Shown here: one piece after another, positions 10,157-22,413 of the stretch
How the letters are laid out: every line of letters starts with the position of its first letter
Numbering within the stretch: the first letter of the stretch is position 1
NCBI RefSeq assembly: GCF_029891575.1
Contig: NZ_JARZHF010000017.1
Location: 1 to 34,773, forward strand
Source: Salipaludibacillus daqingensis
GTDB lineage: Bacteria; Bacillota; Bacilli; Bacillales; Salisediminibacteriaceae
DNA: 34,773 nt
Direction: 5' to 3'
Notes under the pieces: model-generated
What the model saw: the letters and a program-made list of their open reading frames with translations, nothing else
What the model was told of the DNA's origin: nothing
The model's database searches: none
Position numbers and translations under genes: made by a program

Positions 10157-10756
10157 CTAACCTTCTACTCTTTCTTGATCAATAAACTGATGAATAAGTC
10201 GGACAGCATCTAAATAAAAACCCTTCTTTATAGATTTAGATACTTTTTGTTCAAATTTACCGAAACTAGGAACAAGGATTGTTTCCAATACATCTCTCAA
10301 TATGGTACCGATGACATGAACCTCTTCCTCCACTACTTCTTTTCTTTGTAACAGTAAAAAATGTTGAAACATAAGCAAATGGCCAAGATGGTCATGACGA
10401 AGATACTTTTTTTCTGCAAAGGTGATAAACCCTGTAGAATTGTATAACGCAGCTAACTTTTCTAGAAGCTGCTGTTCTCCTTCTGAATCATTTTCACACG
10501 CATACTTGCCTAGATAAGGCGGGACATAATAACTTCCCGGGATAAAGAAGAGATTGTCGTACTGAATCTGCAGTTCCTCTTCTTTTGTTTTCGATAATAA
10601 TTCAAATAAGCGGAGAACATCTTCATCTAATTGCTGAAAGCTTTCATTTTGTGTTTTAAACAAATGTTTTAAAACATCCGTTTCACCGTACATCACTTGA
10701 GCAAACAAGACGTAAAGGAACGTTTTTTCTTCAACGGAGTAGCTCATTGTCCTCAT
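10157..10756 (-). CDS. TorD/DmsD-family chaperone for the molybdoenzyme
   Basis: All-helical cytoplasmic protein of 199 residues. YDNLFFIPGSYYVPPY (about 65-80) and LRHDHLGHLLMF (about 118-129) match the TorD-like redox enzyme maturation proteins. These bind the Tat signal and apo-enzyme of molybdoenzymes and hold them back from export until the cofactor is inserted. It overlaps the end of the catalytic subunit gene by four bases (ATGA) and is the last gene of the tatA-B-C-A-D operon. Its partner is therefore the Tat-signal-bearing protein at 10753-13872. Confidence 0.85.
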   Translation of the reverse strand: MRTMSYSVEEKTFLYVLFAQVMYGETDVLKHLFKTQNESFQQLDEDVLRLFELLSKTKEEELQIQYDNLFFIPGSYYVPPYLGKYACENDSEGEQQLLEKLAALYNSTGFITFAEKKYLRHDHLGHLLMFQHFLLLQRKEVVEEEVHVIGTILRDVLETILVPSFGKFEQKVSKSIKKGFYLDAVRLIHQFIDQERVEG

Positions 10757-13700
10757 GCTTTTTTCACCTCCACCTTTGCATAAAGCTGCGCAGCAGAACC
10801 TCCAATCGGATCGAATAAACCATTATTTTTCAAAATAGGATCAAGGCTTAATAAATCATTCGCTGAAAATCCAGTATCTCTTCCTTTTGCATAAAGTCCT
10901 GACTCTTTCTTCGGTTCCGAAAACTCATAGCTTGTATGACCGTATTCCGAAGCGGCACCGGTCCACTTACCATCTACTTTGATCGGTTTAGAAGCATAAG
11001 CTGTGTGCCCAAAATTGTAACTACACCCTACAACACCTGGACGAATCCCTTCCGTTACCATGACTCGACCTTCCGCTTCATAATCACTTCCACTGATCTT
11101 AACCGTGTCTCCATTCTTCAGACCACGGCCATTCGCGTCGATGCCATTCATCCAAATTGGATTGTCTTCACGAATTTCCCTTAGCCATGCATTCGATATC
11201 TCTCGATGAGTTCCGATATGTTTCGCTTTCCAGTTTGTCATAATTAGCGGTAAGTCTCTCGCATAGGTCGTTTCGTCATATTCTTTTATTTCTTCATAAA
11301 CTGGAATACCGCTATGAAACTCGCCACTAAATGAATGTTTGTTTCTGGCCGTTACTTCATCGTAGAAGTTTGCTTGACCGCCATATTGGTACTTTACATG
11401 TTTTCCATCATTAATATATTCTGTGCCTGGCTCTTCAAATCTACCACCACGATTCAAGACATAAACAACTTTTGCCCATTCCTCTGGTTTGACCGCTTGT
11501 TTCAATCGATCTAAGTCGAAAAATTCTTGGAGCGCTTTTTCTCTTGCGTTAACAAAAATTTGTTGTTCTTCTTTATCCGCATCAGGAACTGGTTCTTCAT
11601 CGTAGGCGATATTTGCTGCCATCTTCATGTAGTATTCTTCATAACTATTTAAAGAACTACCGTCAGTAAAGGCATTGTCCCCTACTCCCGGAAGATCCAA
11701 CCGTTTCGACAATTCAATAAATACGTCTTCCACTGCTTTTGCATCAGGAGCAACTCTTGTCACTGGTTGCATGATACTGCTCAACTTATGAAGTTGGTTC
11801 GGATAAATCGTTTCTTGTCCGAAACGCTCTAAATACGTTAAATCAGGAAGGACATAATCGGATAACTCCGCTCCTTCACTTACGGATATATCTAACGTTA
11901 CGAGAAGAGGAATCTTCTTCTCATCTTTTAATATATCTCGATACACGTGTCCATTTGGAAAGGAAAGAATTGGGTTCATTCTGTAAATGAATAACGCTTT
12001 TAATCCATATGGGTATTCATCTGCCGCACTCGGGATTAATTCATGTGACGAATTCCCTGTTGCCGAAAACCACGGTCGAAGAGCTGGATATCCGCCGTCA
12101 CGCTCAAACAATGTACTTTGCTCATAGTTGGACTGTTTTCTCGTCACTGGAATGCCCCAAGGCGTCTTTCCTTCTGGAACCGTATCTAAATCATAAGCGC
12201 CCTCAAACGGTCCGTAATTGGCCCCTGATGAGATACTACCACCTTTCCAATCGTAGTTCCCTACGAGATGGTTTAATATATTCATTGCTCTTACACTGTA
12301 ATAACCGTTCGTGTGCATTGCATTTCCTCGATAACCAAAAGCTGCGGCTTTTTTTCCATGGGAGGTAAATTCTTTCGCAACGTCTTTGATCATCGCCACG
12401 TCAATGCCAGTGATGTTCGAATATTCTTCGAGCGTATGTTTCATCACTTCTTCTTTATAAAGGGTGAAGGTAGACTTCACTTCCATCCCATCAATGACGG
12501 TATCTACTTCAAGGTCTGCTTCTTCTACTTCCGTAGACAACTGAGGTTTACCATTTTTGAAAACAACGAACGCTTCCTCTTCCTCGATTCCTAAATCAGC
12601 CGGACGAAGTTTTTGTTTCGCCGGATCACTTAGGTTCACGAGGTGAGTTGCATCACTCCATGTTGGCTCCCCATCTTTATCGGCTGCTTCTTTGTTTGGA
12701 TTTACTAAATAACGTTTATCATACTTTTCATTTTCTATTATCCAACGAGCCATGGCTAATGCAAATGCACCATCCGTACCTGGAATAATAGGAATCCAAT
12801 GATGGGCTTTCTCCGCTGTTTTCGATAAGCGTGAATCCACCACTGCCATTTTCATGCCACGTTCAATTGCATTTGTAATTTGTGGTGCCATCCATGTTGG
12901 TCCCTTGTTTGCTACAACCGGATTTGTTCCAAATGCAATCATGTATTCTATATGGTCTATGTCCGTATACGTGCGTCGTTTACCATGTTCAAAGGATCGA
13001 ACATTCCCAATAACACTACTTACGCCGCATATCCCACCATGATCATCAAAATTCACACTACCAAAACCTTGATTCCAAATTCGCGTATTTGTAAAATGGC
13101 GACGATCTCCGCCTAGACAAGCGACTTGATTCACTTTCGGACCAAAGTCTGGATGTTTTGTGTCAATAAGAACATCTTTGTATTTTTCATGAAAATCTTC
13201 TTGCGATAAATTTCCTTCTTTCACTTGTTCCCAATCACCCATCACCGTTTCTTCCTCTTCATATGCGATAAGATCTTTCAATCCAGGAGTGCCTAAATCA
13301 TTGCTACCTTCGACAATTTCTTCATATGCTTGATCCCATGAAATAGTCTTCCACTTGCCACTTCCACGAGGGCCAACGCGCTTCATCGGTTTTTTTAAAC
13401 GATAAGCATCGTACGCTGTTTGAATCCCCGCTTGCCCTTTCAAACACGTTCGTCCCCCTCGCAATCCTCGACCAGCAACTGCAACGCTTCCTCCACCTAA
13501 GGCTGCTGCGGCAACTGGTTTGGCATAATCAATCTGTCCCATCGGTTTCATGGTTAGAGGACTGTAAGGGTTTCCTGCGATTTTGCGCACGAGCGACGTA
13601 CATCCGCCTTCGATTCTCCCTTCTTTCACATACGCCTTGATCGTGCAATGCGTATTACACTGTTCACATGTCGTATAAATGACGTTCTCTGCTGTATAGT

Positions 13701-13872
13701 CTTCCGTTGCCGAACCAATACCATGTTCGTCGTCTGCCCACACATTTCCACTAGTCATCTGACGAATCGGACTCCCGAAAAACGGGGAAGCCACAGCAAT
13801 CGCACTAAGAATTCCCGCTCCTTTGACGAACGACCTTCGATTCAGTTTTTTATCAAACGCAGATTTACTCAT
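10753..13872 (-). CDS. Tat-exported molybdopterin oxidoreductase, catalytic subunit (TtrA/SrdA-like)
   Basis: A DMSO-reductase-family enzyme of 1039 residues. The Tat signal reads LNRRSFVKGAG (Arg12-Arg13) before a hydrophobic stretch, so the folded enzyme works outside the membrane. A [4Fe-4S] site is formed by CEQCNTHC (Cys69, Cys72, Cys76) and Cys143 in RTCLKGQAG. The 66-residue gap before the fourth cysteine is longer than in most relatives. GGICGVSS offers Cys282 as probable Mo ligand, as in the tetrathionate/thiosulfate/arsenate group. Length is close to Salmonella TtrA (about 1020). With the B and C subunits it should reduce an electron acceptor using quinol. Gene order B-C-A fits tetrathionate (ttr) and selenate (srd) reductases; which substrate is used cannot be told here. 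Confidence 0.88.
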   Translation of the reverse strand: MSKSAFDKKLNRRSFVKGAGILSAIAVASPFFGSPIRQMTSGNVWADDEHGIGSATEDYTAENVIYTTCEQCNTHCTIKAYVKEGRIEGGCTSLVRKIAGNPYSPLTMKPMGQIDYAKPVAAAALGGGSVAVAGRGLRGGRTCLKGQAGIQTAYDAYRLKKPMKRVGPRGSGKWKTISWDQAYEEIVEGSNDLGTPGLKDLIAYEEEETVMGDWEQVKEGNLSQEDFHEKYKDVLIDTKHPDFGPKVNQVACLGGDRRHFTNTRIWNQGFGSVNFDDHGGICGVSSVIGNVRSFEHGKRRTYTDIDHIEYMIAFGTNPVVANKGPTWMAPQITNAIERGMKMAVVDSRLSKTAEKAHHWIPIIPGTDGAFALAMARWIIENEKYDKRYLVNPNKEAADKDGEPTWSDATHLVNLSDPAKQKLRPADLGIEEEEAFVVFKNGKPQLSTEVEEADLEVDTVIDGMEVKSTFTLYKEEVMKHTLEEYSNITGIDVAMIKDVAKEFTSHGKKAAAFGYRGNAMHTNGYYSVRAMNILNHLVGNYDWKGGSISSGANYGPFEGAYDLDTVPEGKTPWGIPVTRKQSNYEQSTLFERDGGYPALRPWFSATGNSSHELIPSAADEYPYGLKALFIYRMNPILSFPNGHVYRDILKDEKKIPLLVTLDISVSEGAELSDYVLPDLTYLERFGQETIYPNQLHKLSSIMQPVTRVAPDAKAVEDVFIELSKRLDLPGVGDNAFTDGSSLNSYEEYYMKMAANIAYDEEPVPDADKEEQQIFVNAREKALQEFFDLDRLKQAVKPEEWAKVVYVLNRGGRFEEPGTEYINDGKHVKYQYGGQANFYDEVTARNKHSFSGEFHSGIPVYEEIKEYDETTYARDLPLIMTNWKAKHIGTHREISNAWLREIREDNPIWMNGIDANGRGLKNGDTVKISGSDYEAEGRVMVTEGIRPGVVGCSYNFGHTAYASKPIKVDGKWTGAASEYGHTSYEFSEPKKESGLYAKGRDTGFSANDLLSLDPILKNNGLFDPIGGSAAQLYAKVEVKKA

Positions 13873-15148
13873 GACTGTTCACGTCTCCTTCCTCAGTTTC
13901 CAGTGGTAAAAATTTTGCCCCTAGGGAATATAGAAACAATCCCATTGCTACAACTCCAATAGAGCTTAACCATTCCACCCAGTTTGGAAAATAAAATCCT
14001 TGCGGCAATCCTTTCATGGACTGAACGATTTGTGTTGGGACAACAATATTGAATCGAACTCCGATAATGCCAATGACAACGAGTATAGCGGCTACCGTTA
14101 ATGCTTTCACAGACTGGTTCGTTCGTTTACTAAATACGAGATAAATTGGCACAACGGCTCCTAGAAACAGTTGTACTCCCCAGAACGACCAAGACATCGG
14201 TCCAGTGAACATGACATCAAGCACAGCCATTTTTTCTGGTTTCAAACTCAGTCCTGCGACTAGAAATTCATAAAATTCAAGCGTTAAGTCAATCACAAGG
14301 AAAAAGATCATTAACGTAGCTAATCCTTTGATCATCGTGAGGTCTACCGTTTTCCCTCTCACTTTTCGTTGTATCACATACATAGCGATGAGTAGTGCCG
14401 TTCCTGAAACGAGAGCAGAGACAACAAAAATAATTGGAAATAAAGGGGTGTTCCAATATGGCTGAGCCGCTACCGCCGCAAACAATGTTCCTGTCCCACC
14501 ATGAACACCAATAATCGCAATAGGAATTCCGATAATCCCTAAAATTTTCATCCAGCGATGATCTTTTTTAGCGGATAGGTCTGATGTATCATCACTACCA
14601 AGACGAATCACATTGGCTAGCTTACTCTTAAACCCTAGTTTTTCTTTTGCTAGTTTTACTAGATCAATTCTCATGGCAAACCATAGTTCCGTTGCTAAGA
14701 GAACCATATAAATTAAATAGAAACGAACTTCCCACGAAAGGATACTCATGACATTCCAAAACGTCATCGCGTTAAATGATCGATCCATCCTTCCTAAATC
14801 CAACAAAATAAACGTTAAGGCGACAACCATACAAATAAGTGCGGTAAACAATGCAAACCTACCAACTCGTTCGTATTGTTCCATCCCAAATACGAAAATC
14901 AACGTAGACAATAGAAACGCTCCAGCACTTAATCCAACAAAAAAAATATAAAAGGCAACCCATGCGCCCCATGGAACGAAAGCACTCAAATTCGTCACTG
15001 CCAATCCTTCTATTGCTCGGTATAATATTGCTCCACCGCCGGCAATCATACTGATAACCAATGCTGTCATCCATCGTTTGAATCGTTTGGCGGTTATCGT
15101 TTCAGATTCTTCGTTATGTTGTTGTTGTAAAATCGCTGATTGACTCAT
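13865..15148 (-). CDS. NrfD/PsrC-type membrane subunit (quinol-oxidising)
   Basis: A 427-residue polytopic membrane protein with about nine or ten hydrophobic helices. Early it carries AFVPWGAWVAFYIFFVGLSA, the hallmark of NrfD/PsrC/TtrC proteins that anchor molybdoenzyme complexes and pass quinol electrons to the ferredoxin subunit. Acidic and aromatic residues such as LTLEFYEF lie within helices. AGGAGG precedes the ATG. Its last codons overlap the start of the catalytic subunit gene by eight bases, and only 12 bases separate it from the ferredoxin subunit gene. It carries no haem-binding CxxCH. Confidence 0.88.
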   Translation of the reverse strand: MSQSAILQQQHNEESETITAKRFKRWMTALVISMIAGGGAILYRAIEGLAVTNLSAFVPWGAWVAFYIFFVGLSAGAFLLSTLIFVFGMEQYERVGRFALFTALICMVVALTFILLDLGRMDRSFNAMTFWNVMSILSWEVRFYLIYMVLLATELWFAMRIDLVKLAKEKLGFKSKLANVIRLGSDDTSDLSAKKDHRWMKILGIIGIPIAIIGVHGGTGTLFAAVAAQPYWNTPLFPIIFVVSALVSGTALLIAMYVIQRKVRGKTVDLTMIKGLATLMIFFLVIDLTLEFYEFLVAGLSLKPEKMAVLDVMFTGPMSWSFWGVQLFLGAVVPIYLVFSKRTNQSVKALTVAAILVVIGIIGVRFNIVVPTQIVQSMKGLPQGFYFPNWVEWLSSIGVVAMGLFLYSLGAKFLPLETEEGDVNSHE

Positions 15149-15160
15149 TTTTTTCTCCTC

Positions 15161-16018
15161 CTAACGTAAGTAATATACTCTTGGCTCTGTGCCGTACTCT
15201 TCTTTTAAACGGAAAGCTCTTGAACTATTAGCCATTTTCGAAACGACGCTATCCGGATTATTCAAGTCCCCAAAGAATCTCGCATCCCCTATACACGTTT
15301 CTACACATGCTGGTTCTTCTCCACGCTCTAATCGATGAAAACAAAAATTACATTTTCGAACGGTTCCAATCGGTGACTTGCCGTCCTCTCGTTTCCCTCG
15401 ATCCATTCCATGTTCTGGAGACGTTGCCTCTTGATAGCCTGTCATTTCATCGTAGTTTTCCCCAAAGTCGAACGTCCTTGCTCCGTAAGGGCATGCAACC
15501 ATGCAATATCTGCAACCGATACAGCGATCGGAATCTTGCACGACAATGCCGTTATCTGCTTTGTACGTTGCTCTTACCGGACAAACAGACGCACATGGTG
15601 GCTTATCACAATGCATACACGGTCGAGCAATATTCGTTCGAGAAACGTTTGGAAACGTCCCTTCCTCTTCTACAAAAACTTGGTTGTAAGATACTCCAGG
15701 TGGTGTGCGATTTTCTGCTTTGCAAGATACAGTGCACGTTTCACATCCGACACACTTTCTTAAATCAATCACCATTCCCCATTTGACACCGCTTTGGTCA
15801 TCGGTTGTTGCTTGTAATGCAAGTTTTTGTTTGAATTCTTTCCCAACAGATTCTTGGTATTTTTCCACAAATGCTTGCTCACTGATCAATCCATCAGACA
15901 ACCTTCTCGCATCTGCTGCCATATTCAGTCCTAATTTCGTGTCATATTTGGATGACTTAAGAATATCTGCTCCATTTACTAATCCTTTATTGATCAACAC
16001 ATCGTATTTCGAACTCAT
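15161..16018 (-). CDS. Four [4Fe-4S] cluster ferredoxin-type electron transfer subunit
   Basis: Beta subunit that relays electrons between the NrfD-type membrane subunit and the molybdoenzyme. Sixteen cysteines fall in four groups: CVGCETCTVSC, CMHCDKPPCASVC, CIGCRYCMVAC and CNFC...CVETC, the classical DmsB/TtrB/PsrB layout. The C-terminus ends in a GTEP-x-VYYLR segment typical of the family. An N-terminal extension of about 60 residues precedes the first cluster and has no Tat or Sec signal, so export would be by hitch-hiking on the catalytic subunit. Start: ATG 16045 directly follows the tatA stop but has no ribosome binding site. ATG 16018 (MSSKYDV) has GGGGGA about ten bases upstream and is preferred, giving 285 residues. 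Confidence 0.9.
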   Translation of the reverse strand: MSSKYDVLINKGLVNGADILKSSKYDTKLGLNMAADARRLSDGLISEQAFVEKYQESVGKEFKQKLALQATTDDQSGVKWGMVIDLRKCVGCETCTVSCKAENRTPPGVSYNQVFVEEEGTFPNVSRTNIARPCMHCDKPPCASVCPVRATYKADNGIVVQDSDRCIGCRYCMVACPYGARTFDFGENYDEMTGYQEATSPEHGMDRGKREDGKSPIGTVRKCNFCFHRLERGEEPACVETCIGDARFFGDLNNPDSVVSKMANSSRAFRLKEEYGTEPRVYYLR

Positions 16019-16045
16019 TTCCAGTTCCCCCTTCTTCTCTGTCAT

Positions 16046-16231
16046 TTATGAACGGTCATTTTTGTCCTTTTCAGAATCATCGTCACTCGTCAATTCTCTT
16101 GTTGATTTTTTAAATTCCTTTAATGTGTCGCCGACGGCTCGCCCCATTTCCGGTAACTTCTTCGGTCCAAACACAATCAATGCAATGATTAAAATGATAA
16201 TCAGTCCTGGAATCCCAATATTTGATAACAT
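16046..16231 (-). CDS. tatA: Twin-arginine translocase subunit TatA
   Basis: A 61-residue TatA: short hydrophobic helix (about 4-20), [15 protein letters not shown] hinge and amphipathic helix, then a charged tail. It is very like B. subtilis TatAy and lies in the same chromosomal place (next to rex and ydiK in that genome), but the usual tatC partner does not follow. It is instead the first gene of the respiratory operon, directly after a sigma-54 promoter and ahead of a subunit set whose catalytic member needs Tat. TatA oligomers form the passage for folded proteins; a TatC must come from elsewhere. GGGGAG precedes the ATG. Confidence 0.92.
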
Positions 16232-16270
16232 CGTTGTCTCCCCTTTCTGTTTCTCGTCAGTTAATTAAAA

Positions 16271-16286
16271 TGCAATTCTCATGCCA
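16271..16286 (-). promoter_or_regulatory. Sigma-54 (SigL/RpoN) promoter of the respiratory operon
   Basis: On the minus strand TGGCAT-GAGAA-TTGCA, against the consensus TGGCAC-N5-TTGCW: 10 of 11 conserved positions match, with GG and GC at the -24/-12 distance. It lies about 40 bases before the tatA start. The adjacent NtrC-type activator gene supports it. Confidence 0.85.
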
Positions 16287-16377
16287 AAACGAAAAAAAGA
16301 TGATGCAATTATTTAAAATAATCGCACCACCCTTGTCGTATCAACATTTTTAATTTTTAACTTTTTTTAAAAACGAA

Positions 16378-16408
16378 AAATTCCCTACCTCAGAAAGGGA
16401 AGGAATTT
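16378..16408 (-). terminator. Terminator of the regulator gene
   Basis: On the minus strand AAATTCC and GGAATTT enclose a 17-base loop and are followed by TTCGTTTTT. It would end the exporter-sensor-regulator transcript before the respiratory operon. Confidence 0.55.
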
Positions 16409-16418
16409 CTGTTAACCA

Positions 16419-16461
16419 TGCCATCATGTCATAGTTAGAAAAATAGAATGTCAAAATGGCA
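16419..16461. promoter_or_regulatory. Candidate enhancer (upstream activating sequence) for the NtrC-type regulator
   Basis: TGCCATCATGTCA (16419-16431) and TGTCAAAATGGCA (16449-16461) form an inverted repeat with 10 of 13 matching positions. They lie about 135-190 bp upstream of the sigma-54 promoter, the usual enhancer distance, with a very AT-rich, possibly bent, stretch between. Confidence 0.5.
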
Positions 16462-16471
16462 CAGCATTAAG

Positions 16472-17836
16472 TTAATCTCGATCATTTTCTAATCCATGAT
16501 GGTCTATTTTCCGGTAAATGTTTCGCACACTTATACCTAAAATGTCTGCCGCTTCTGACTTGTTCCAATTCGTACTATCCAACACTTGCGCCATATGATC
16601 TCGTTCGATTTCTTCCAAAGATCTTTTTACAACTTCAGCTTTATCTGTCTTCTTACCAAAACTTTGTTCAGGCCCTTTCGTGTTCGGAAGGAGCAAATCT
16701 TCCACACAAATGACCCCATCGCTACAAAGTAAACACCCTCGTTCTATCATATGAAACAATTCCCGCACATTCCCTGGGAAGTCATACGCCATCAATGCCT
16801 CCATCGTTTCTTCTGTTAACGATGTTCCTTGCCATTTCTTTTTTGTATTCAAATAAAAACGAACAAGAGCCGGTATGTCTTCTTTCCGATCTCTTAATGG
16901 CGGAACGATAATCTTCAAGACTTGTAATCGGTAATATAAATCCTCTCGAAAATTTCCATTGGCTACTTCCTCTTCGACATTTCTGTTTGTCGCTGTTACA
17001 ATCCTCACTTTCACTTGCCGTTCTTTTACTTCTCCAACTCGTCTAAACTGGCCTGTTTCCAAAAAACGAAGCAATTTCACTTGCACTCCCAAAGGCATTT
17101 CGCCAATCTCATCTAGAAACAGCGTCCCTTTATCTGCCACTTCGACAAGACCTTTTTTATCCTTTTGTGCCCCTGTAAATGCTCCTTTAACATGGCCAAA
17201 TAGTTCGCTTTCTAGAAGCTGTTCTGGAATGGCTCCAGAATTAATTGCAATAAACGGTGCTTCTTTTCGTTCGCTCCAGTAGTGGAGTGCTTTCGCAAAT
17301 AATTCTTTTCCCGTTCCACTTTCCCCTTCGATTAAAATCGATGCATCAGCATTGGCGACTTTTGCGGTTAAATGGATTGCGCTTTGTATTTCTTGACTTG
17401 TCCCAATAATTTCAAAGGAATTTTCTTTCGTATGCATCCATTCTTTCATAGTGTCGTGATCTTCTTTTAACTGCTTTTTTTCCAATGCTTTGGCAAGGAC
17501 TACTTCAAGTTCAGAAAGGTTGTAAGGTTTCGTTAAATAATCGTAGGCTCCTTTTTTCATCGCTTCAATCGCCGTCTCGATCGTCCCATGACCTGTTAAC
17601 ATAATGATTTCCATCATTTTCCTGTCACTTTCTTTCACTTTTTCTAATAAAGAAAGTCCATCCATTCCGTCCATTCGTATATCAAATATGCCTAAATCGT
17701 ATGTTTCGGTATTCAATTTGTTTAATGCTTCTTCCGCAGATGAACACCCCTCCGCGTCATATCCTTTGCGAACTAATCGATTCACTAGCAACTCACGAAG
17801 ATCTTGTTCATCGTCTACTACTAATACGTTTTTCAT
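16472..17836 (-). CDS. NtrC-family response regulator, sigma-54 activator
   Basis: 454 residues with three parts. The receiver domain (1-120) has Asp8/Asp9 and the phospho-acceptor Asp52 in GIFDIRMDG, and Lys in YLTKPY. The AAA+ domain has GESGTGKE (Walker A), GAFTGA (the sigma-54 contact loop) and FLDEIGEM (Walker B). The C-terminal Fis-type helix-turn-helix has ADILGISVRNIYRKI. GAFTGA is intact, so it should drive open complex formation by sigma-54 polymerase. The start overlaps the kinase stop by four bases. Its most likely target is the TGGCAT-N5-TTGCA promoter ahead of tatA, 200 bp downstream. Confidence 0.92.
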   Translation of the reverse strand: MKNVLVVDDEQDLRELLVNRLVRKGYDAEGCSSAEEALNKLNTETYDLGIFDIRMDGMDGLSLLEKVKESDRKMMEIIMLTGHGTIETAIEAMKKGAYDYLTKPYNLSELEVVLAKALEKKQLKEDHDTMKEWMHTKENSFEIIGTSQEIQSAIHLTAKVANADASILIEGESGTGKELFAKALHYWSERKEAPFIAINSGAIPEQLLESELFGHVKGAFTGAQKDKKGLVEVADKGTLFLDEIGEMPLGVQVKLLRFLETGQFRRVGEVKERQVKVRIVTATNRNVEEEVANGNFREDLYYRLQVLKIIVPPLRDRKEDIPALVRFYLNTKKKWQGTSLTEETMEALMAYDFPGNVRELFHMIERGCLLCSDGVICVEDLLLPNTKGPEQSFGKKTDKAEVVKRSLEEIERDHMAQVLDSTNWNKSEAADILGISVRNIYRKIDHHGLENDRD

Positions 17837-19950
17837 CGTGATTCCCCCTCTCCTTCATCCACGTTCTCCGTCGATAACTCCACCGGTAACATGACCTTAA
17901 ATGTACTTCCTACGTCTAGCTGACTTTCCACTTCCATCGTTCCGCGCATTTGCTTGACGATGCCATAACAGACAGATAAGCCAAGCCCTGTCCCTTTGCC
18001 TGTTGGTTTTGAGGTAAAAAACGGGTCGAACAGCTTTTGAATATTTGATTCAGATATCCCAATCCCGTTATCTTGAAAGGAAACCGTTACATACTCTGCG
18101 TCACGTTTCAAAAAGATATCCAACGTTGGTGACTCTTGTTGGCTTAAGGCATCCATGGCATTTTGAATCAAGTTAACGAACACTTGACTGATCTTCAATG
18201 GATCCCCCTTCATAACGGGCATGATTTCTTGTTTATGAATAGAGACTGAAACACGCTGTTTTTTCAAAGAATGCTCCATCAGCATCAAACTTTCGTTCAA
18301 CACTGTATCAATCGAAAATTCCTCTGTTTTCCAAGGAGATTTTCTTGAGAAATTGAGTAAATTCGTCGTTATTTCTTTGCAACGGTTAATATTTTTACGA
18401 ATGATTTGTAAATAATGATCCATATCGCCACTTTCAAGTAGCTCAGATTTGTCCTCTTCTAAACGATCCATAAGATCCTCGGCGTAAACTTGAACCGATG
18501 CTAGCGGGTTATTCACTTCATGTGCAAAACTTGAAGCCATTAAACCTAGTGCCGATAATTTATCTGTTTGAATCAGCTTCTCTTCCATCTTTTTCTCTTC
18601 CGTAATGTCCTCCATCACAATAAGAACTTCCTCATCGTCTTCAAGGGCATACTGTAGTGGAAAAACACGGTGACGATAGGTCCGCAACTCTCCATCTTTC
18701 CCTGTTTTCGTTAAAAGTTCATCCATTTTTTCAAACGAGGTGGCCTCATTTAATGGACAAGCATAACAAGGGGATTCTTTATCATCATTAAACAGTTGAA
18801 AACATGGGATATTCGTTCGAGAACCGATCCAATTTTGCAATGTTGGATTCATCCAAGCAATGGAATAATCTTTTTTTACAACTGCTAACCCTGCATCCAT
18901 ACTGTTAACGACAATATCTAACCGTTCTTTCTCTTGTTTTAACCGACGTTCTTTTTCTTGTATTTCTGTTGTCATTTCATTGAAAGCCATCGTCAATTCA
19001 CCAAATTCGTCGTTCCGATCCACTTCCATTTTTTCAGGCCAATAGCCGTATTTAACGTGTTTCATTCCACTTTGTAACTTTTCTATTGGTTTGACAAAAT
19101 AAAGCCCTGCATAAATACTAAGGACGCTTCCAAATAAAATCATCAAGGAAGCAGTGAAGGTTCCACTTCGAAGCATGTCATATATTGGGGCCAGCATCTC
19201 CCGCCTCGATTGTTCCAAAACGAGTTCCCATTCCACCTCATCGATCGGTGAACGAAGCATCATCATTCCATCCATGTCGTCCACGTTTTCCCTGTCTGAT
19301 TGTTGCCAAAGATTGGCGTAGTCTTGATGGGCGATAATTTGTCCATGTTGATCTCGTAAATAGATCGCCGACTCATTTTCCATTTGATAAGATGATACAT
19401 TTCCAATTAACTTTTGTAATTGAAGTGAAACTCCGATTTGATAAGCCGTTTCCCCAGAAGTTTCTACGACAAGTTGGATATAAGGTTGCCCATATTCATT
19501 AAATCTCACATCAGAGAAAAAGTGCCCTTCACTCTCTAACTGTTGCTCTTTCAGTGAATCAGCTAACCACTCGTCCTGATCTGGCTCAAGATCATTTAGT
19601 TCATATCTTGAAATACGCTCTTGCACATCCCCTTGCTCATCTAACAACACGATTTCATCAATCGATTCTTGTTGTTTTAGTAAATCATAAAAAACACTAG
19701 CTTGACCGGTTAGATCAGACATACTACCGATCATTTCCATCCGTTGAAACGTTTGATCGATATTGTTTCGTATCGTCTGGGCAAAATTTTCGACTCTCAG
19801 CTCTTGGGAAGATTCTGCTGATTCTTCCACATAGCCCGACATTTCTAGCAAGTAATAAACAGAAATAAGCAACAAGGGGATAATCGACATCATTAATCCG
19901 AAAAACAAAACTTTGTAACGAATTGATTGAAAGGCGTGGCGTCGTCTCAT
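17833..19950 (-). CDS. Membrane sensor histidine kinase with extracellular sensing domain, HAMP and cysteine-bearing PAS region
   Basis: 705 residues. Order: membrane helix (about 13-35); extracellular region (about 36-262), probably a Cache-type sensor; second membrane helix (about 264-286); HAMP (about 286-340); PAS region (about 341-450); DHp domain with FAHEVNNPLAS (phospho-acceptor His477); and a catalytic domain with NLIQNAMD, DNGIGIS and GKGTGLGLS. The PAS region holds Cys383, Cys395 and Cys398 in the pattern C-x11-C-x2-C-P, which could bind a metal or respond to redox state. It overlaps the binding protein gene by four bases upstream and the regulator gene downstream. It should phosphorylate the NtrC-type regulator in response to an acceptor outside, sensed directly or through the binding protein. 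Confidence 0.9.
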   Translation of the reverse strand: MRRRHAFQSIRYKVLFFGLMMSIIPLLLISVYYLLEMSGYVEESAESSQELRVENFAQTIRNNIDQTFQRMEMIGSMSDLTGQASVFYDLLKQQESIDEIVLLDEQGDVQERISRYELNDLEPDQDEWLADSLKEQQLESEGHFFSDVRFNEYGQPYIQLVVETSGETAYQIGVSLQLQKLIGNVSSYQMENESAIYLRDQHGQIIAHQDYANLWQQSDRENVDDMDGMMMLRSPIDEVEWELVLEQSRREMLAPIYDMLRSGTFTASLMILFGSVLSIYAGLYFVKPIEKLQSGMKHVKYGYWPEKMEVDRNDEFGELTMAFNEMTTEIQEKERRLKQEKERLDIVVNSMDAGLAVVKKDYSIAWMNPTLQNWIGSRTNIPCFQLFNDDKESPCYACPLNEATSFEKMDELLTKTGKDGELRTYRHRVFPLQYALEDDEEVLIVMEDITEEKKMEEKLIQTDKLSALGLMASSFAHEVNNPLASVQVYAEDLMDRLEEDKSELLESGDMDHYLQIIRKNINRCKEITTNLLNFSRKSPWKTEEFSIDTVLNESLMLMEHSLKKQRVSVSIHKQEIMPVMKGDPLKISQVFVNLIQNAMDALSQQESPTLDIFLKRDAEYVTVSFQDNGIGISESNIQKLFDPFFTSKPTGKGTGLGLSVCYGIVKQMRGTMEVESQLDVGSTFKVMLPVELSTENVDEGEGESR

Positions 19951-20945
19951 TCGCCCACACCCCCATTTCTTATTGGATCTACTAGTTTTAAGAGGTTTTC
20001 ATCTACAGTTACGTTCAACTGTTCACGTACGTCTTCATTCATATAGAAAGATATTTGGTCCGGTAATTCTACGGGAATATCTTTAGGATCATTGCCTTGT
20101 AAAATCAAACTTATCTGTCTAGCAGCTTGAAGTCCTTGCTCATAAAAAGACGATCCATAACCTAATAGAAACCCCGCTTCCACTTCATAATCATACATGC
20201 CCATTGTAGGAAGATTTTCATCCTTCGCAAACGACACAATCTCTTCTGTTAAACCTTCAATTTGAAAACTCGGTAACGTCATTAACCCATCCCCAGGTTG
20301 CACGATGGATACAAGTTCCTCCTCATCCAACTCGTCAGAAACGTGGAAAGGAACGATCGGTAAACTTAATCGCTCCGCCGCTTCCTCCGTAAGAGCTAAC
20401 GACCGACGACTAATATCAATTCCTTCACTGTATAATAAAATAACTCTCTCGACCTCAGGAACCATGTCTGTGAACAGTTCAAGTCTCTTCGCTGATAGGT
20501 TCATGTGATAATTATTAATACCTGTGAAATTTCCGCCAGGATGACGAAAATCGGAGATGATTCCTGTTTCTAAAGGAGCCGCCATTCCTATGAAAACGGT
20601 TGGTATAGTTTTCCCAACATCATCCATCACTTCAGCTAAAACTTGTGTTTCAATCCCTCCAAATGACGCAATGACTTGAACGTCGTCTTCGGCTACAAGC
20701 TCTCTCGCATATGGTTCTAATAATTCCGCTTCTTCTTCCCCTTCATAAACAATAAATACCATTTCCTCGGTCTCGTAACCTAAATCTTCTAAACCAGCTT
20801 TTAGTCCTTCTAATTTATCTATTCGATTCTCGCCTGTTAACAACACTCCAACGGTATGGACTTCTTCTTGTTCTGCGAATTCTCGAAATAAAAATATCGC
20901 CATGAAGACCACTATTACTGCGAAGAGAAGCAATCCCTTCTTCAC
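19947..20945 (-). CDS. ABC-type substrate-binding protein (TrpX/PF04392-like), probable sensor partner
   Basis: About 332 residues with the fold of the ABC_sub_bind family: VGVLLTGENRID near the start, then IASFGG, TVFIGMAAPLETG, GNFTGIN and the hinge-region YGSSFYEQG. An N-terminal hydrophobic helix lacks a lipobox cysteine, so it may be anchored by an uncleaved signal. Start: the longest frame begins at ATG 20966, but a GGGGGGAGGAG ribosome binding site lies inside that extension; the GTG at 20945 (MKKGLLLF) is better. No ABC permease or ATPase accompanies it. It overlaps the kinase gene, so it probably presents a ligand to the kinase rather than to a transporter. TtrS carries a binding-protein-like sensor domain, and ArrX/ArxX-type systems use separate binding proteins; the ligand here is unknown. 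Confidence 0.8.
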   Translation of the reverse strand: MKKGLLLFAVIVVFMAIFLFREFAEQEEVHTVGVLLTGENRIDKLEGLKAGLEDLGYETEEMVFIVYEGEEEAELLEPYARELVAEDDVQVIASFGGIETQVLAEVMDDVGKTIPTVFIGMAAPLETGIISDFRHPGGNFTGINNYHMNLSAKRLELFTDMVPEVERVILLYSEGIDISRRSLALTEEAAERLSLPIVPFHVSDELDEEELVSIVQPGDGLMTLPSFQIEGLTEEIVSFAKDENLPTMGMYDYEVEAGFLLGYGSSFYEQGLQAARQISLILQGNDPKDIPVELPDQISFYMNEDVREQLNVTVDENLLKLVDPIRNGGVGE

Positions 20946-20976
20946 CGCAATCTCCTCCCCCCTCATTAAACTTCTA

Positions 20977-22413
20977 TTAACTCTCTTTTTCTTGTTGTCT
21001 TTGCTCTTGTACTTGTTGTTTTTTATACTCTTTTCCGAGCAAAACCCCCGCTGGAATAGATAAAAATGCTAATACAGCGATGACGAAAAAACCTTCTGTT
21101 ATTGCCGTTAGACTTGCTTCTTCGATTGGGATACTTGAATTATTGGCCATCACTTGCCCACGTCTTACTTCAAAATAGATCGAAACAAATACAATCCCAA
21201 GAGCGGAGCTCATTTGTCTTAAAACATTATTCATTGCTGAACCACGCGAAACAAACTTCTCTGGTATGGAGTTCATTCCGGCCGTTGTTGCTGGCATCGT
21301 ACTTAATCCCATTCCAATCCCTCGTACGGCATTCAAGACAAAAATCACCCATATCGCTGTTTCCATTCCGATAAAACCAAGCAGCAATGTCCCTACTGCT
21401 ACAATCGTTAAACCTGTTGTGACAATGATCGCTGGTCCTTGTTTATCCAATAATCGCCCACCAATTGTCATGAATACTCCTGTTAATAAAGCCGCTGGTA
21501 AAAACGTTAATCCTGTCATAATTGCACCAAGACCATACACTTGCTGAATCAATAAGGGAAGAAGAAAAATCCCTCCAAATAATGAAACAGAACTGATCAT
21601 CGCTACCCAAACGCTATATGTATAGGCAGGGATTTTGAAAATGGATAAGTCCAATAATGGTTGGTCCGTTCGATTTTCAATACGTACAAATAGGATTAAC
21701 GATATTATTCCAACAATAAATAGACTAATATTCGTCACGTCTCGCAAATGACTCAATTCAGATACTCTACCTAGGGCAAATAACATGGATCCTACACCTA
21801 ACGTCACCGTAATAAAACCTAATAGATCGAAACGAATGTTAGCTACTTTTTCTGTTTGCTTCAGATAAACAATCGAAAAAATGAGCCCGAGCACACCTGT
21901 TGGGATATTAAACAAAAATAACCATTCCCAAGTACCCATTTCAATAATAACTCCACCAAGAGTCGGACCAATTGTTGGTGCCATCATCGCCGCAATTCCC
22001 CAAACGCCTGTTGCAAGCCCTCGTTCTTTTCTCGGAAAAGCTTCAAATATTAGTGCTAAAGACAACGGCATCATCACACCACCACCGACGCCTTGGAGGC
22101 CTCTGAAAAATATTAATGACGATAAGTCCCAAGAAAGAGAACCTAATATCGAGCCTAAAATAAACAAACATAAACCAGCTATGTAAAGTTGTTTCTTACC
22201 AAATTTATCTCCTAAAAATCCAGTTAGAGGCATGATCATTCCCATCGTAACCATAAAAATGGTGATAACCCATCCTGTTGCGACAGCATCTGAATCAAAC
22301 ACATTCATTAAATGAGGAACTGCAGGATTTAGCATGCTATTATTTAATATAATTGTAAACGTTCCTAGTAAGACTGTTATGACAACCAGCCATTTCTGTG
22401 GGATTTTTGCCAT
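20977..22413 (-). CDS. MFS transporter of the DHA2 (EmrB/QacA) drug:proton antiporter family
   Basis: 478 residues, about 14 membrane helices. DHA2 hallmarks are LNNSMLNPAVPHL in helix 1, GFLGDKFGKKQ in the loop after helix 2 and the antiporter motif region APTIGPTLGG in helix 5. It exports a small molecule by proton exchange. The stop lies 31 bases before the preferred start of the binding protein gene, with no terminator between, so it is probably the first gene of the exporter-sensor-regulator transcript. A link to the respiratory substrate or product (for example export of a toxic reduced oxyanion or co-selection) is conceivable but is only inference from position. Confidence 0.85.
   Translation of the reverse strand: MAKIPQKWLVVITVLLGTFTIILNNSMLNPAVPHLMNVFDSDAVATGWVITIFMVTMGMIMPLTGFLGDKFGKKQLYIAGLCLFILGSILGSLSWDLSSLIFFRGLQGVGGGVMMPLSLALIFEAFPRKERGLATGVWGIAAMMAPTIGPTLGGVIIEMGTWEWLFLFNIPTGVLGLIFSIVYLKQTEKVANIRFDLLGFITVTLGVGSMLFALGRVSELSHLRDVTNISLFIVGIISLILFVRIENRTDQPLLDLSIFKIPAYTYSVWVAMISSVSLFGGIFLLPLLIQQVYGLGAIMTGLTFLPAALLTGVFMTIGGRLLDKQGPAIIVTTGLTIVAVGTLLLGFIGMETAIWVIFVLNAVRGIGMGLSTMPATTAGMNSIPEKFVSRGSAMNNVLRQMSSALGIVFVSIYFEVRRGQVMANNSSIPIEEASLTAITEGFFVIAVLAFLSIPAGVLLGKEYKKQQVQEQRQQEKES

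What the first reader, a model, noticed from the sequence alone, without database searches (positions are those of the whole stretch)
10157..22413. Self-contained sigma-54-controlled respiratory module with its own three-part sensor
Read on the minus strand: exporter, binding protein, histidine kinase and NtrC-type regulator, overlapping or closely spaced, then a sigma-54 promoter and tatA, ferredoxin subunit, NrfD subunit, Tat-exported molybdoenzyme and TorD chaperone. Known ttr operons (TtrSRBCA) and Bacillus srdBCA share the B-C-A order. The separate anchored binding protein, an NtrC/sigma-54 switch instead of a TtrR-type regulator, a co-transcribed DHA2 exporter and an operon-encoded TatA are, as far as I know, not a described combination. 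The electron acceptor is unknown; Cys282 as Mo ligand favours the tetrathionate/thiosulfate/arsenate group over Asp-ligated selenate or nitrate enzymes.
Basis: partly seen in the sequence, partly recalled or inferred. Interest (0 to 1): 0.8.

Follow-up and report, generated by a model that had tools for sequence, protein, structure and literature searches.

The report
Sigma-54-switched respiratory enzyme operon with sensor
A salt-loving Bacillus relative carries an operon that probably lets it breathe an unknown compound, together with its own external sensor and genetic switch, and the same enzyme, sensor and switch sites recur in many related bacteria, which makes the unknown compound testable.

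Summary
In detail: PF04392 binding protein, histidine kinase and NtrC-type regulator, then a sigma-54 site (16271-16286), tatA, FeS subunit, NrfD, Tat-exported molybdoenzyme and TorD. (1) The DHA2 exporter is not part of the module: 33 of 35 family genomes have an ortholog, usually beside rex, while only 8 have the enzyme. (2) The set is not unique: binding protein-kinase-regulator-B-C-A is complete in 32 of 40 bacterial loci examined in one Bacillota-wide enzyme clade, and the three-part principle is published (AioXSR, ArxXSR, ArrX/ArrTSR, TorT). New here: a 13-bp enhancer dyad, TGNCA-N3-TGNCA, present exactly twice in the window, both upstream of the sigma-54 site; it is in 31 of 33 loci with the cognate regulator directly upstream and 0 of 7 scanned loci with another or no regulator and no good site. 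The enzyme belongs to the TtrA/SrdA lineage but lies outside true TtrA; the substrate is unknown, a sulfur oxyanion somewhat favoured. The binding protein is class I, unlike AioX (class II). A new variant of a known kind, widespread, not found described in the papers searched.

The parts
19947..20966 (-). membrane-anchored class I binding protein (PF04392), sensor component X
   Evidence: 146.6 bits; AlphaFold model mean pLDDT 92.7 with N-terminal helix 2-31; Foldseek best hits 3lkv, 3lft (with L-Trp), 6hnj/6hni (CD0873)
17833..19950 (-). histidine kinase: dCache-like outer part, HAMP, PAS region with C-x(10-11)-CxxC, HisKA, HATPase
   Evidence: dCache_1 20.5 bits, below its cut-off of 45; Foldseek of residues 1-338 gives chemoreceptor models, then KinD and dCache chemoreceptor domains (model pLDDT 74.8); Cys motif
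16472..17836 (-). NtrC-type response regulator (receiver, sigma-54 interaction, Fis-type HTH)
16449..16461 (-). enhancer dyad 1, TGNCA-N3-TGNCA, 175 bp upstream of the sigma-54 site
   Evidence: only two such 13-mers in the whole window
16419..16431 (-). enhancer dyad 2, 145 bp upstream of the sigma-54 site
16296..16334 (-). intrinsic-terminator-like hairpin (18 pairs) closing the regulator transcript just before the sigma-54 site
   Evidence: consensus match; 13 such sites found in the stretch, 9.9 expected
16271..16286 (-). sigma-54 -24/-12 site, TGGCATGAGAATTGCA
   Evidence: aligned in 8 of 8 family loci
16046..16231 (-). tatA
   Evidence: 82.7 bits; tatA before the FeS gene in 23 of 23 clade loci of the window's own order
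15161..16045 (-). B subunit, FeS dicluster ferredoxin
13865..15148 (-). C subunit, NrfD-type membrane anchor
10753..13872 (-). A subunit, Tat-exported molybdoenzyme, TtrA/SrdA lineage, Cys282 as Mo ligand
10157..10756 (-). TorD-family maturation chaperone
   Evidence: PF02613
9994..10029 (-). terminator-like hairpin (16 pairs) after torD
20977..22413 (-). DHA2 exporter: resident neighbour of rex, judged NOT part of the module

Best explanation
A three-component, sigma-54-dependent respiratory operon. Inferred chain: an extracytoplasmic compound binds the anchored PF04392 protein; the complex acts on the outer domain of the kinase; the kinase phosphorylates the NtrC-type regulator; the regulator binds two TGNCA-N3-TGNCA dyads and drives sigma-54 polymerase at 16271-16286 to transcribe tatA-B-C-A-torD. 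The Tat-exported Mo enzyme then reduces its acceptor outside the membrane with quinol electrons through NrfD and the FeS subunit. Shown from sequence: families, gene order, promoter and enhancers conserved with the cognate regulator, co-inheritance of sensor and enzyme, one RpoN. Inferred: every signalling step, the electron path, the ligand, and that ligand = substrate. Most likely acceptor: a sulfur oxyanion such as tetrathionate or thiosulfate (about 0.45); selenate about 0.2; arsenate about 0.1; other, possibly organic, the rest. The confidence below is for architecture and regulation, not for the acceptor.
For: Families. SBP-HK-RR-tatA-B-C-A-torD in the window and 7 of 7 other family loci. 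Sigma-54 site of 10 or more of 12 in 31 of 33 loci with the cognate regulator upstream; best 9 in L162 and L164. Enhancer dyad in 31 of these 33, missing in L165 and L171, and in 0 of 7 scanned loci with no or another regulator and no good site. SBP, HK and RR distances follow those of the enzyme: Mantel r 0.71, 0.76, 0.82 with the catalytic subunit, n = 27 of 33 loci after dropping 6 near-duplicates, 0 of 2000 permutations each. One RpoN. Only one PF04392 protein in the genome. For sulfur: active-site stretch HGGICG like E. coli-plasmid TtrA HGAYCG and unlike the ArrA-like HSSICA; rhodaneses plus PF04143 beside L052, PF04143 plus PF03601 beside L165, PF03601 plus a NIR_SIR protein beside L166; the genome has a separate ArrA-like enzyme (1082 bits, under the curated cut-off of 1600).
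Against: No experiment. The enzyme is outside the true TtrA clade. A near solved relative of the binding protein binds L-Trp (3lft), not an oxyanion. The sulfur genes were picked by eye at three loci and could be chance. L174 and L175 have promoter and dyads but no regulator in the fetched stretch; L177 has the enzyme without regulator, dyad or good site; L178 has the enzyme without regulator and was not scanned. Mantel permutations do not remove shared species history, so congruence fits joint vertical descent too.
Confidence: 0.72

Rival explanations
1. The enzyme is a selenate reductase of the SrdBCA kind and the sensor detects selenate.
For: SrdA lies in the TtrA/SrdA lineage (PMC7331816 passages).
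Against: G797 also holds a second lineage member, L156, without the sensor set or dyads. All nine matching genomes of that genus hold the module copy and only G797 holds a second match. Which copy is srdA could not be settled; the 2011 paper is not held and the identity of G797 is inference.
Confidence: 0.2
2. The enzyme is an alternative arsenate reductase, as proposed for the Ttr-type enzymes of Pyrobaculum and Melioribacter, and the sensor is an ArrX-like arsenate sensor.
For: Ttr-type enzyme beside an ArrTSR set in Melioribacter, transcript raised with arsenate though only the Psr/Phs-type enzyme significantly; a TtrA-lineage operon inside an ars cluster on a Citrobacter plasmid.
Against: The genome has a separate ArrA-like enzyme with an adjacent TatA (under the curated ArrA cut-off); no ars family among the 20 window ORFs scanned (the last 6.8 kb and short ORFs were not scanned); ArrX is in the class II AioX subfamily, this protein is class I; active-site motif TtrA-like, not ArrA-like.
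Confidence: 0.1
3. The regulator set and the reductase are chance neighbours, and the exporter, sensor and kinase form a drug or amino-acid response unrelated to respiration.
For: The exporter sits 10 bp before the binding protein; a PF04392-type relative binds L-Trp.
Against: The exporter stays beside rex when the module lies elsewhere (L091 and L076 versus L009 and L052) and is split in G025 while the module stays whole. Sensor set and enzyme are adjacent in 32 of 40 bacterial loci of the clade and the dyads sit at the enzyme promoter.
Confidence: 0.03

Closest known systems
AioXSR with aioBA (Rhizobium NT-26, Agrobacterium)
   Same: Separately encoded binding protein, kinase and regulator next to a molybdoenzyme operon with a sigma-54 promoter (TGGCACAACGATTGCA); passages of PMC6011840
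   Different: AioX is a class II, PhnD-related protein (PMC5908839 passages); here class I PF04392. AioBA oxidises arsenite rather than reducing an acceptor.
ArrX / ArrTSR and ArxXSR
   Same: Three-part sensor for a molybdoenzyme of arsenic metabolism; in Melioribacter an ArrTSR set is directly upstream of a Ttr-type enzyme (PMC5492636 passages)
   Different: Binding protein is related to phosphonate-binding PhnD. The Aminicenantes locus L018 (PF12974 + HK + NtrC-type RR + TtrA-like enzyme) looks like this type, with a different binding-protein family.
TtrSR-TtrBCA
   Same: B-C-A order, Cys-ligated TtrA-lineage enzyme
   Different: Separate clade; NF011567 score 455.8 bits against cut-off 1750; no separate binding-protein gene in the annotated E. 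coli-plasmid set L063; in Azospirillum L062 one gene before the regulator is annotated as PhnD-type binding protein. That TtrS fuses binding domain and kinase is recalled.
TorT-TorS-TorR / LuxP-LuxQ-LuxO
   Same: A binding protein that signals rather than transports (TorT and LuxP so named in PMC5908839 passages; their class I fold and LuxO as a sigma-54 regulator are recalled)
   Different: Other binding-protein families and targets; TorR is not NtrC-type (recalled)
SrdBCA of Mesobacillus selenatarsenatis
   Same: Same enzyme lineage; B-C-A order as in the name
   Different: No regulatory set described in the texts I saw; sequence not available here, so not compared

Membership tests
TtrA-type tetrathionate reductase | Catalytic subunit above the curated NF011567 cut-off | tested here: not met
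   455.8 bits against 1750
TtrA-type tetrathionate reductase | Groups with annotated TtrA in a tree | tested here: not met
   TtrA rows L063 and L064 form a 5-row clade with L065, L062 and L181 (100/100); window in another clade of 26 rows (100/100)
TtrA-type tetrathionate reductase | B-C-A gene order | tested here: met
TtrA-type tetrathionate reductase | TtrS/TtrR-type regulation (fused sensor, short regulator; recalled) | tested here: not met
   separate PF04392 protein and NtrC-type regulator
TtrA/SrdA/alternative ArrA lineage | Cys-ligated, nearer to TtrA than to ArrA or PsrA | tested here: met
ArrA arsenate reductase | Above NF041714 cut-off or grouping with ArrA | tested here: not met
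   140.8 bits against 1600; ArrA-like rows outside
AioXSR-type three-component system | PhnD-related class II binding protein | tested here: not met
   PF04392 only; class I neighbours
AioXSR-type three-component system | Sensor kinase plus regulator at a sigma-54 promoter of a molybdoenzyme | tested here: met
   anatomy only:
NtrC-type sigma-54 activation | sigma-54 site, upstream dyads, AAA+ activator, RpoN in the genome | tested here: met
SrdBCA selenate reductase | Sequence match to SrdA and selenate reduction | not testable with these tools
   SrdA sequence not reached

The most novel reading that the evidence does not exclude
The 43-row clade is a separate, still unassigned family of respiratory molybdoenzymes that evolved with its own class I binding-protein sensor and a dedicated sigma-54 enhancer code (TGNCA-N3-TGNCA) across Bacillota. 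If ligand equals substrate, as for AioX, ArxX and ArrX, this would be a class I binding protein that senses an inorganic oxyanion, or else the enzyme reduces an organic acceptor that nobody has tested.
Probability: 0.4. Interest if true: 0.7.

Novelty: new variant of a known kind. Interest (0 to 1): 0.5.

Why it matters
Few TtrA/SrdA-lineage enzymes have a proven acceptor (my reading of the papers seen). Here the enzyme comes with its own extracellular sensor in over thirty loci, so measuring what the binding protein binds would point directly at the acceptor of a whole enzyme clade. It also suggests that the three-part sensor idea is served by two unrelated binding-protein folds, and it gives a clear cis-motif for a sigma-54 respiratory regulon in Bacillota.

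Tried and rejected
Exporter as a module part: rejected. TatA as a relic of the chromosomal rex-tatAy-tatCy locus of B. subtilis (recalled gene order): rejected, since tatA travels with the module to other loci (L009, L052) and other families. Arsenate as acceptor: made unlikely by the separate ArrA-like enzyme. SrdA identity: tried through papers and through G797; unresolved. Flanking genes give no common substrate clue: ORF starts listed were read by eye, and ten proteins were scanned and ten.

Not examined: in the phylum search 42 matches are listed; I fetched flanks for 20 and one (G429), one is the window, and 20 were left, among them G085:C1:1827623 at 1332 bits. In the order search 24 matches are listed; 18 were fetched, five were already held and one second gene fragment was left. 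L160 (gene split over contigs) and L161 (same place as L009) were fetched but left out of tree and counts; L178 and L181 were not scanned for promoter or dyads (no B gene upstream). Clade counts are therefore for fetched loci only, and genomes were sampled (398 of the phylum, 397 of the order).
Full report
What is there. The window is contig C17 of a 4.58 Mb genome whose family includes Texcoconibacillus, Salipaludibacillus and Salisediminibacterium (titles; equal contig lengths tie G034, G025, G028 and G032 to them). The catalytic subunit scores best with the TtrA model NF011567, 455.8 bits, far below its cut-off of 1750.

The exporter is a neighbour. The enzyme is in 8 of 35 family genomes. 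In the window and the 7 other loci the order SBP-HK-RR-tatA-B-C-A-torD is kept. The exporter is adjacent in 6 of the 8: the window, L010, L011, L012, L050, L051. Of 30 exporter loci checked, 27 show rex in the same stretch and 6 show the binding protein; of the other 24, 13 show the downstream gene Rce1 and/or its small neighbour. In G034 and G013 the exporter stays by rex (L091, L076) while the module lies elsewhere (L009, L052). In G025 the exporter is split about 37 kb apart and the module is intact.

Two transcription units. A terminator-like hairpin of 18 pairs (16296-16334) ends just before the sigma-54 site (16271-16286), so regulator genes and enzyme genes look like separate transcripts (such matches are also expected by chance, 9.9 in the stretch). 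The alignment of the 8 family regions shows the sigma-54 site aligned and, further up, two tandem dyads.

The enhancer motif. TGNCA-N3-TGNCA occurs exactly twice in the 34,773 bases, both between regulator and promoter (16449-16461 and 16419-16431). At least one exact copy is in 8 of 8 family loci (two copies in 6) and in 23 of 25 further loci with a cognate regulator (more than 45% identical) directly upstream; the misses are L165 and L171. Expected numbers from shuffles are 0.00-0.02 per region. Seven scanned loci with another regulator, or none, and no good sigma-54 site have none: L145, L146, L156, L157, L177, L179, L180. L174 and L175 have site and dyads without a regulator in the fetched stretch. 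L178 and L181 were not scanned. Start-to-start spacing of paired dyads is about 20-22, 30-31 or 34 bp (from the distances).

The sigma-54 site. A score of 10 or more of 12 is reached in 31 of the same 33 loci (8; 23 of 25). L162 and L164 reach only 9. L165's site lies 366 bp before the B gene and may be fortuitous. In the oriented family stretches further sites of 10 lie inside genes of the window, L009 and L051. The genome has one RpoN.

How wide it is. A profile of 18 catalytic subunits (A1) finds strong relatives in 32 of 398 sampled phylum genomes and 22 of 397 sampled order genomes. I fetched neighbourhoods for part of them. In the tree of 64 rows (SH-aLRT only, with the tool's warnings about long branches and letter make-up) a clade of 43 rows (99) holds the window, other genomes of its order, genomes from elsewhere in the phylum (clostridia by inference) and haloarchaea. 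A second tree on 40 rows, under a simpler model and with 24 rows dropped, long ones among them, gives 100/100 for the matching group of 26 rows. Of the 40 bacterial rows, 32 have binding protein, kinase and cognate regulator adjacent. Of the other eight, L143 and L168 are cut by contig ends, L145 and L146 have a different two-component pair, and L174, L175, L177 and L178 show none. One more complete set, L181, sits downstream of an enzyme that groups near true TtrA. tatA before the B gene is in 23 of 23 clade loci of the window's own order; torD is in 22 of 23 (not L144).

Co-inheritance. Pairwise distances of SBP, HK and RR correlate with each other at r 0.93-0.94 and with the catalytic subunit at 0.71, 0.76 and 0.82; 27 of 33 loci were used after removal of 6 near-duplicates, and 0 of 2000 permutations reached any value. 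This shows that the parts share a history; it does not exclude simple vertical descent.

Relation to known enzymes. Annotated TtrA rows (E. coli plasmid L063, Pseudomonas L064) form their own clade with Aeromonas, Azospirillum and L181. ArrA-like rows fall outside; these are labelled from a search in which none passed the curated ArrA cut-off (1064-1124 bits against 1600). Cys282 is invariant (64 of 64); residues around it read HGGICG in the window, HGAYCG in the E. coli-plasmid TtrA and HSSICA in the same genome's ArrA-like enzyme. Haloarchaeal plasmids carry B-C-A-D at about 48% identity (5 plasmid hits), with a divergent bacterio-opsin activator in place of the sensor set in the 4 of these 5 whose annotation I fetched: the enzyme core appears to have crossed domains and changed its switch.

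The sensor. The binding protein models well (mean pLDDT 92.7) and is a class I fold nearest to 3lkv, 3lft (bound to L-Trp) and CD0873. Lys160-Arg161 are invariant in 33 of 33 module binding proteins, while 3lkv and 3lft have Gln-His and Gln-Gln there (alignments). That may suit an anion or a docking surface; it is a hint only. The kinase's outer part is dCache-like (three relatives pass the dCache_1 cut-off; the window's own match does not). Its PAS region carries a C-x(10-11)-CxxC pattern in all 20 kinases of complete sets from the window's order, in L169 and L171, and in none of the other ten of complete sets elsewhere in the clade nor in L181, which suggests an added redox or metal input; this is inference.

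What is in print. Passages of PMC6011840 describe aioXSR beside aioBA with an RpoN promoter; passages of PMC5908839 describe ArxX and ArrX and name TorT and LuxP as signalling binding proteins; passages of PMC5492636 describe an ArrTSR set upstream of a Ttr-type enzyme in Melioribacter. In the sigma-54 survey of Clostridiales (PMC6615313) a word search found no molybd-, tetrathionate or respirat-. Searches listed nothing that I recognised as the PF04392-HK-NtrC set with this enzyme; only open-licence PMC papers are searched.

Acceptor. A sulfur oxyanion is favoured by the TtrA-like active-site stretch and by sulfur genes beside three loci. Selenate stays open because G797, which fits M. selenatarsenatis, has both a module copy and another lineage enzyme. 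Arsenate is less likely because the genome has a separate ArrA-like enzyme. None of this is proof.

Verdict.

Noticed in passing
L010 1-2928; G025:C22 202161-240421; G023:C3 723820-765025: The DHA2 exporter gene is split by about 37 and 40 kb near residue 150 in two genomes; ORFs beside it in L010 read by eye like phage lysis genes, so the gene may be an integration site.
   Followed up: partly
L059, L060, L188, L189 (haloarchaeal plasmids): The same B-C-A-D enzyme core at about 48% identity under a divergent bacterio-opsin activator: regulator swapped after apparent transfer between domains.
   Followed up: partly
window 17833-19950, from about residue 383: C-x(10-11)-CxxC motif in the PAS region of the kinases of the window's order, absent from most others of the clade.
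   Followed up: partly
L061 3532-13414: Citrobacter plasmid with a TtrA-lineage B-C-A operon plus a small following ORF beside ars resistance genes; matches of like score on Enterobacter, Salmonella and E. coli plasmids.
   Followed up: no
L018 10-9834: Aminicenantes contig with a PhnD-type binding protein, kinase, NtrC-type regulator and a TtrA-like enzyme: the same logic with the other binding-protein family.
   Followed up: partly
L156, L157: Two B-C-A sets in a row, a PsrA-size enzyme (749-756 aa) then a TtrA-lineage enzyme (about 1048 aa), with tatA after it.
   Followed up: no
G000:C5:95972-98745: The window's genome also has an ArrA-like enzyme with TatA next to it, 25 matching pieces to the catalytic subunit in all (pieces, not genes), a single TatC and four TatA.
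   Followed up: no
L144: In another family (f168) the module lies at the same exporter-module-Rce1-groES site, so this position is probably ancestral for the subclade.
   Followed up: partly
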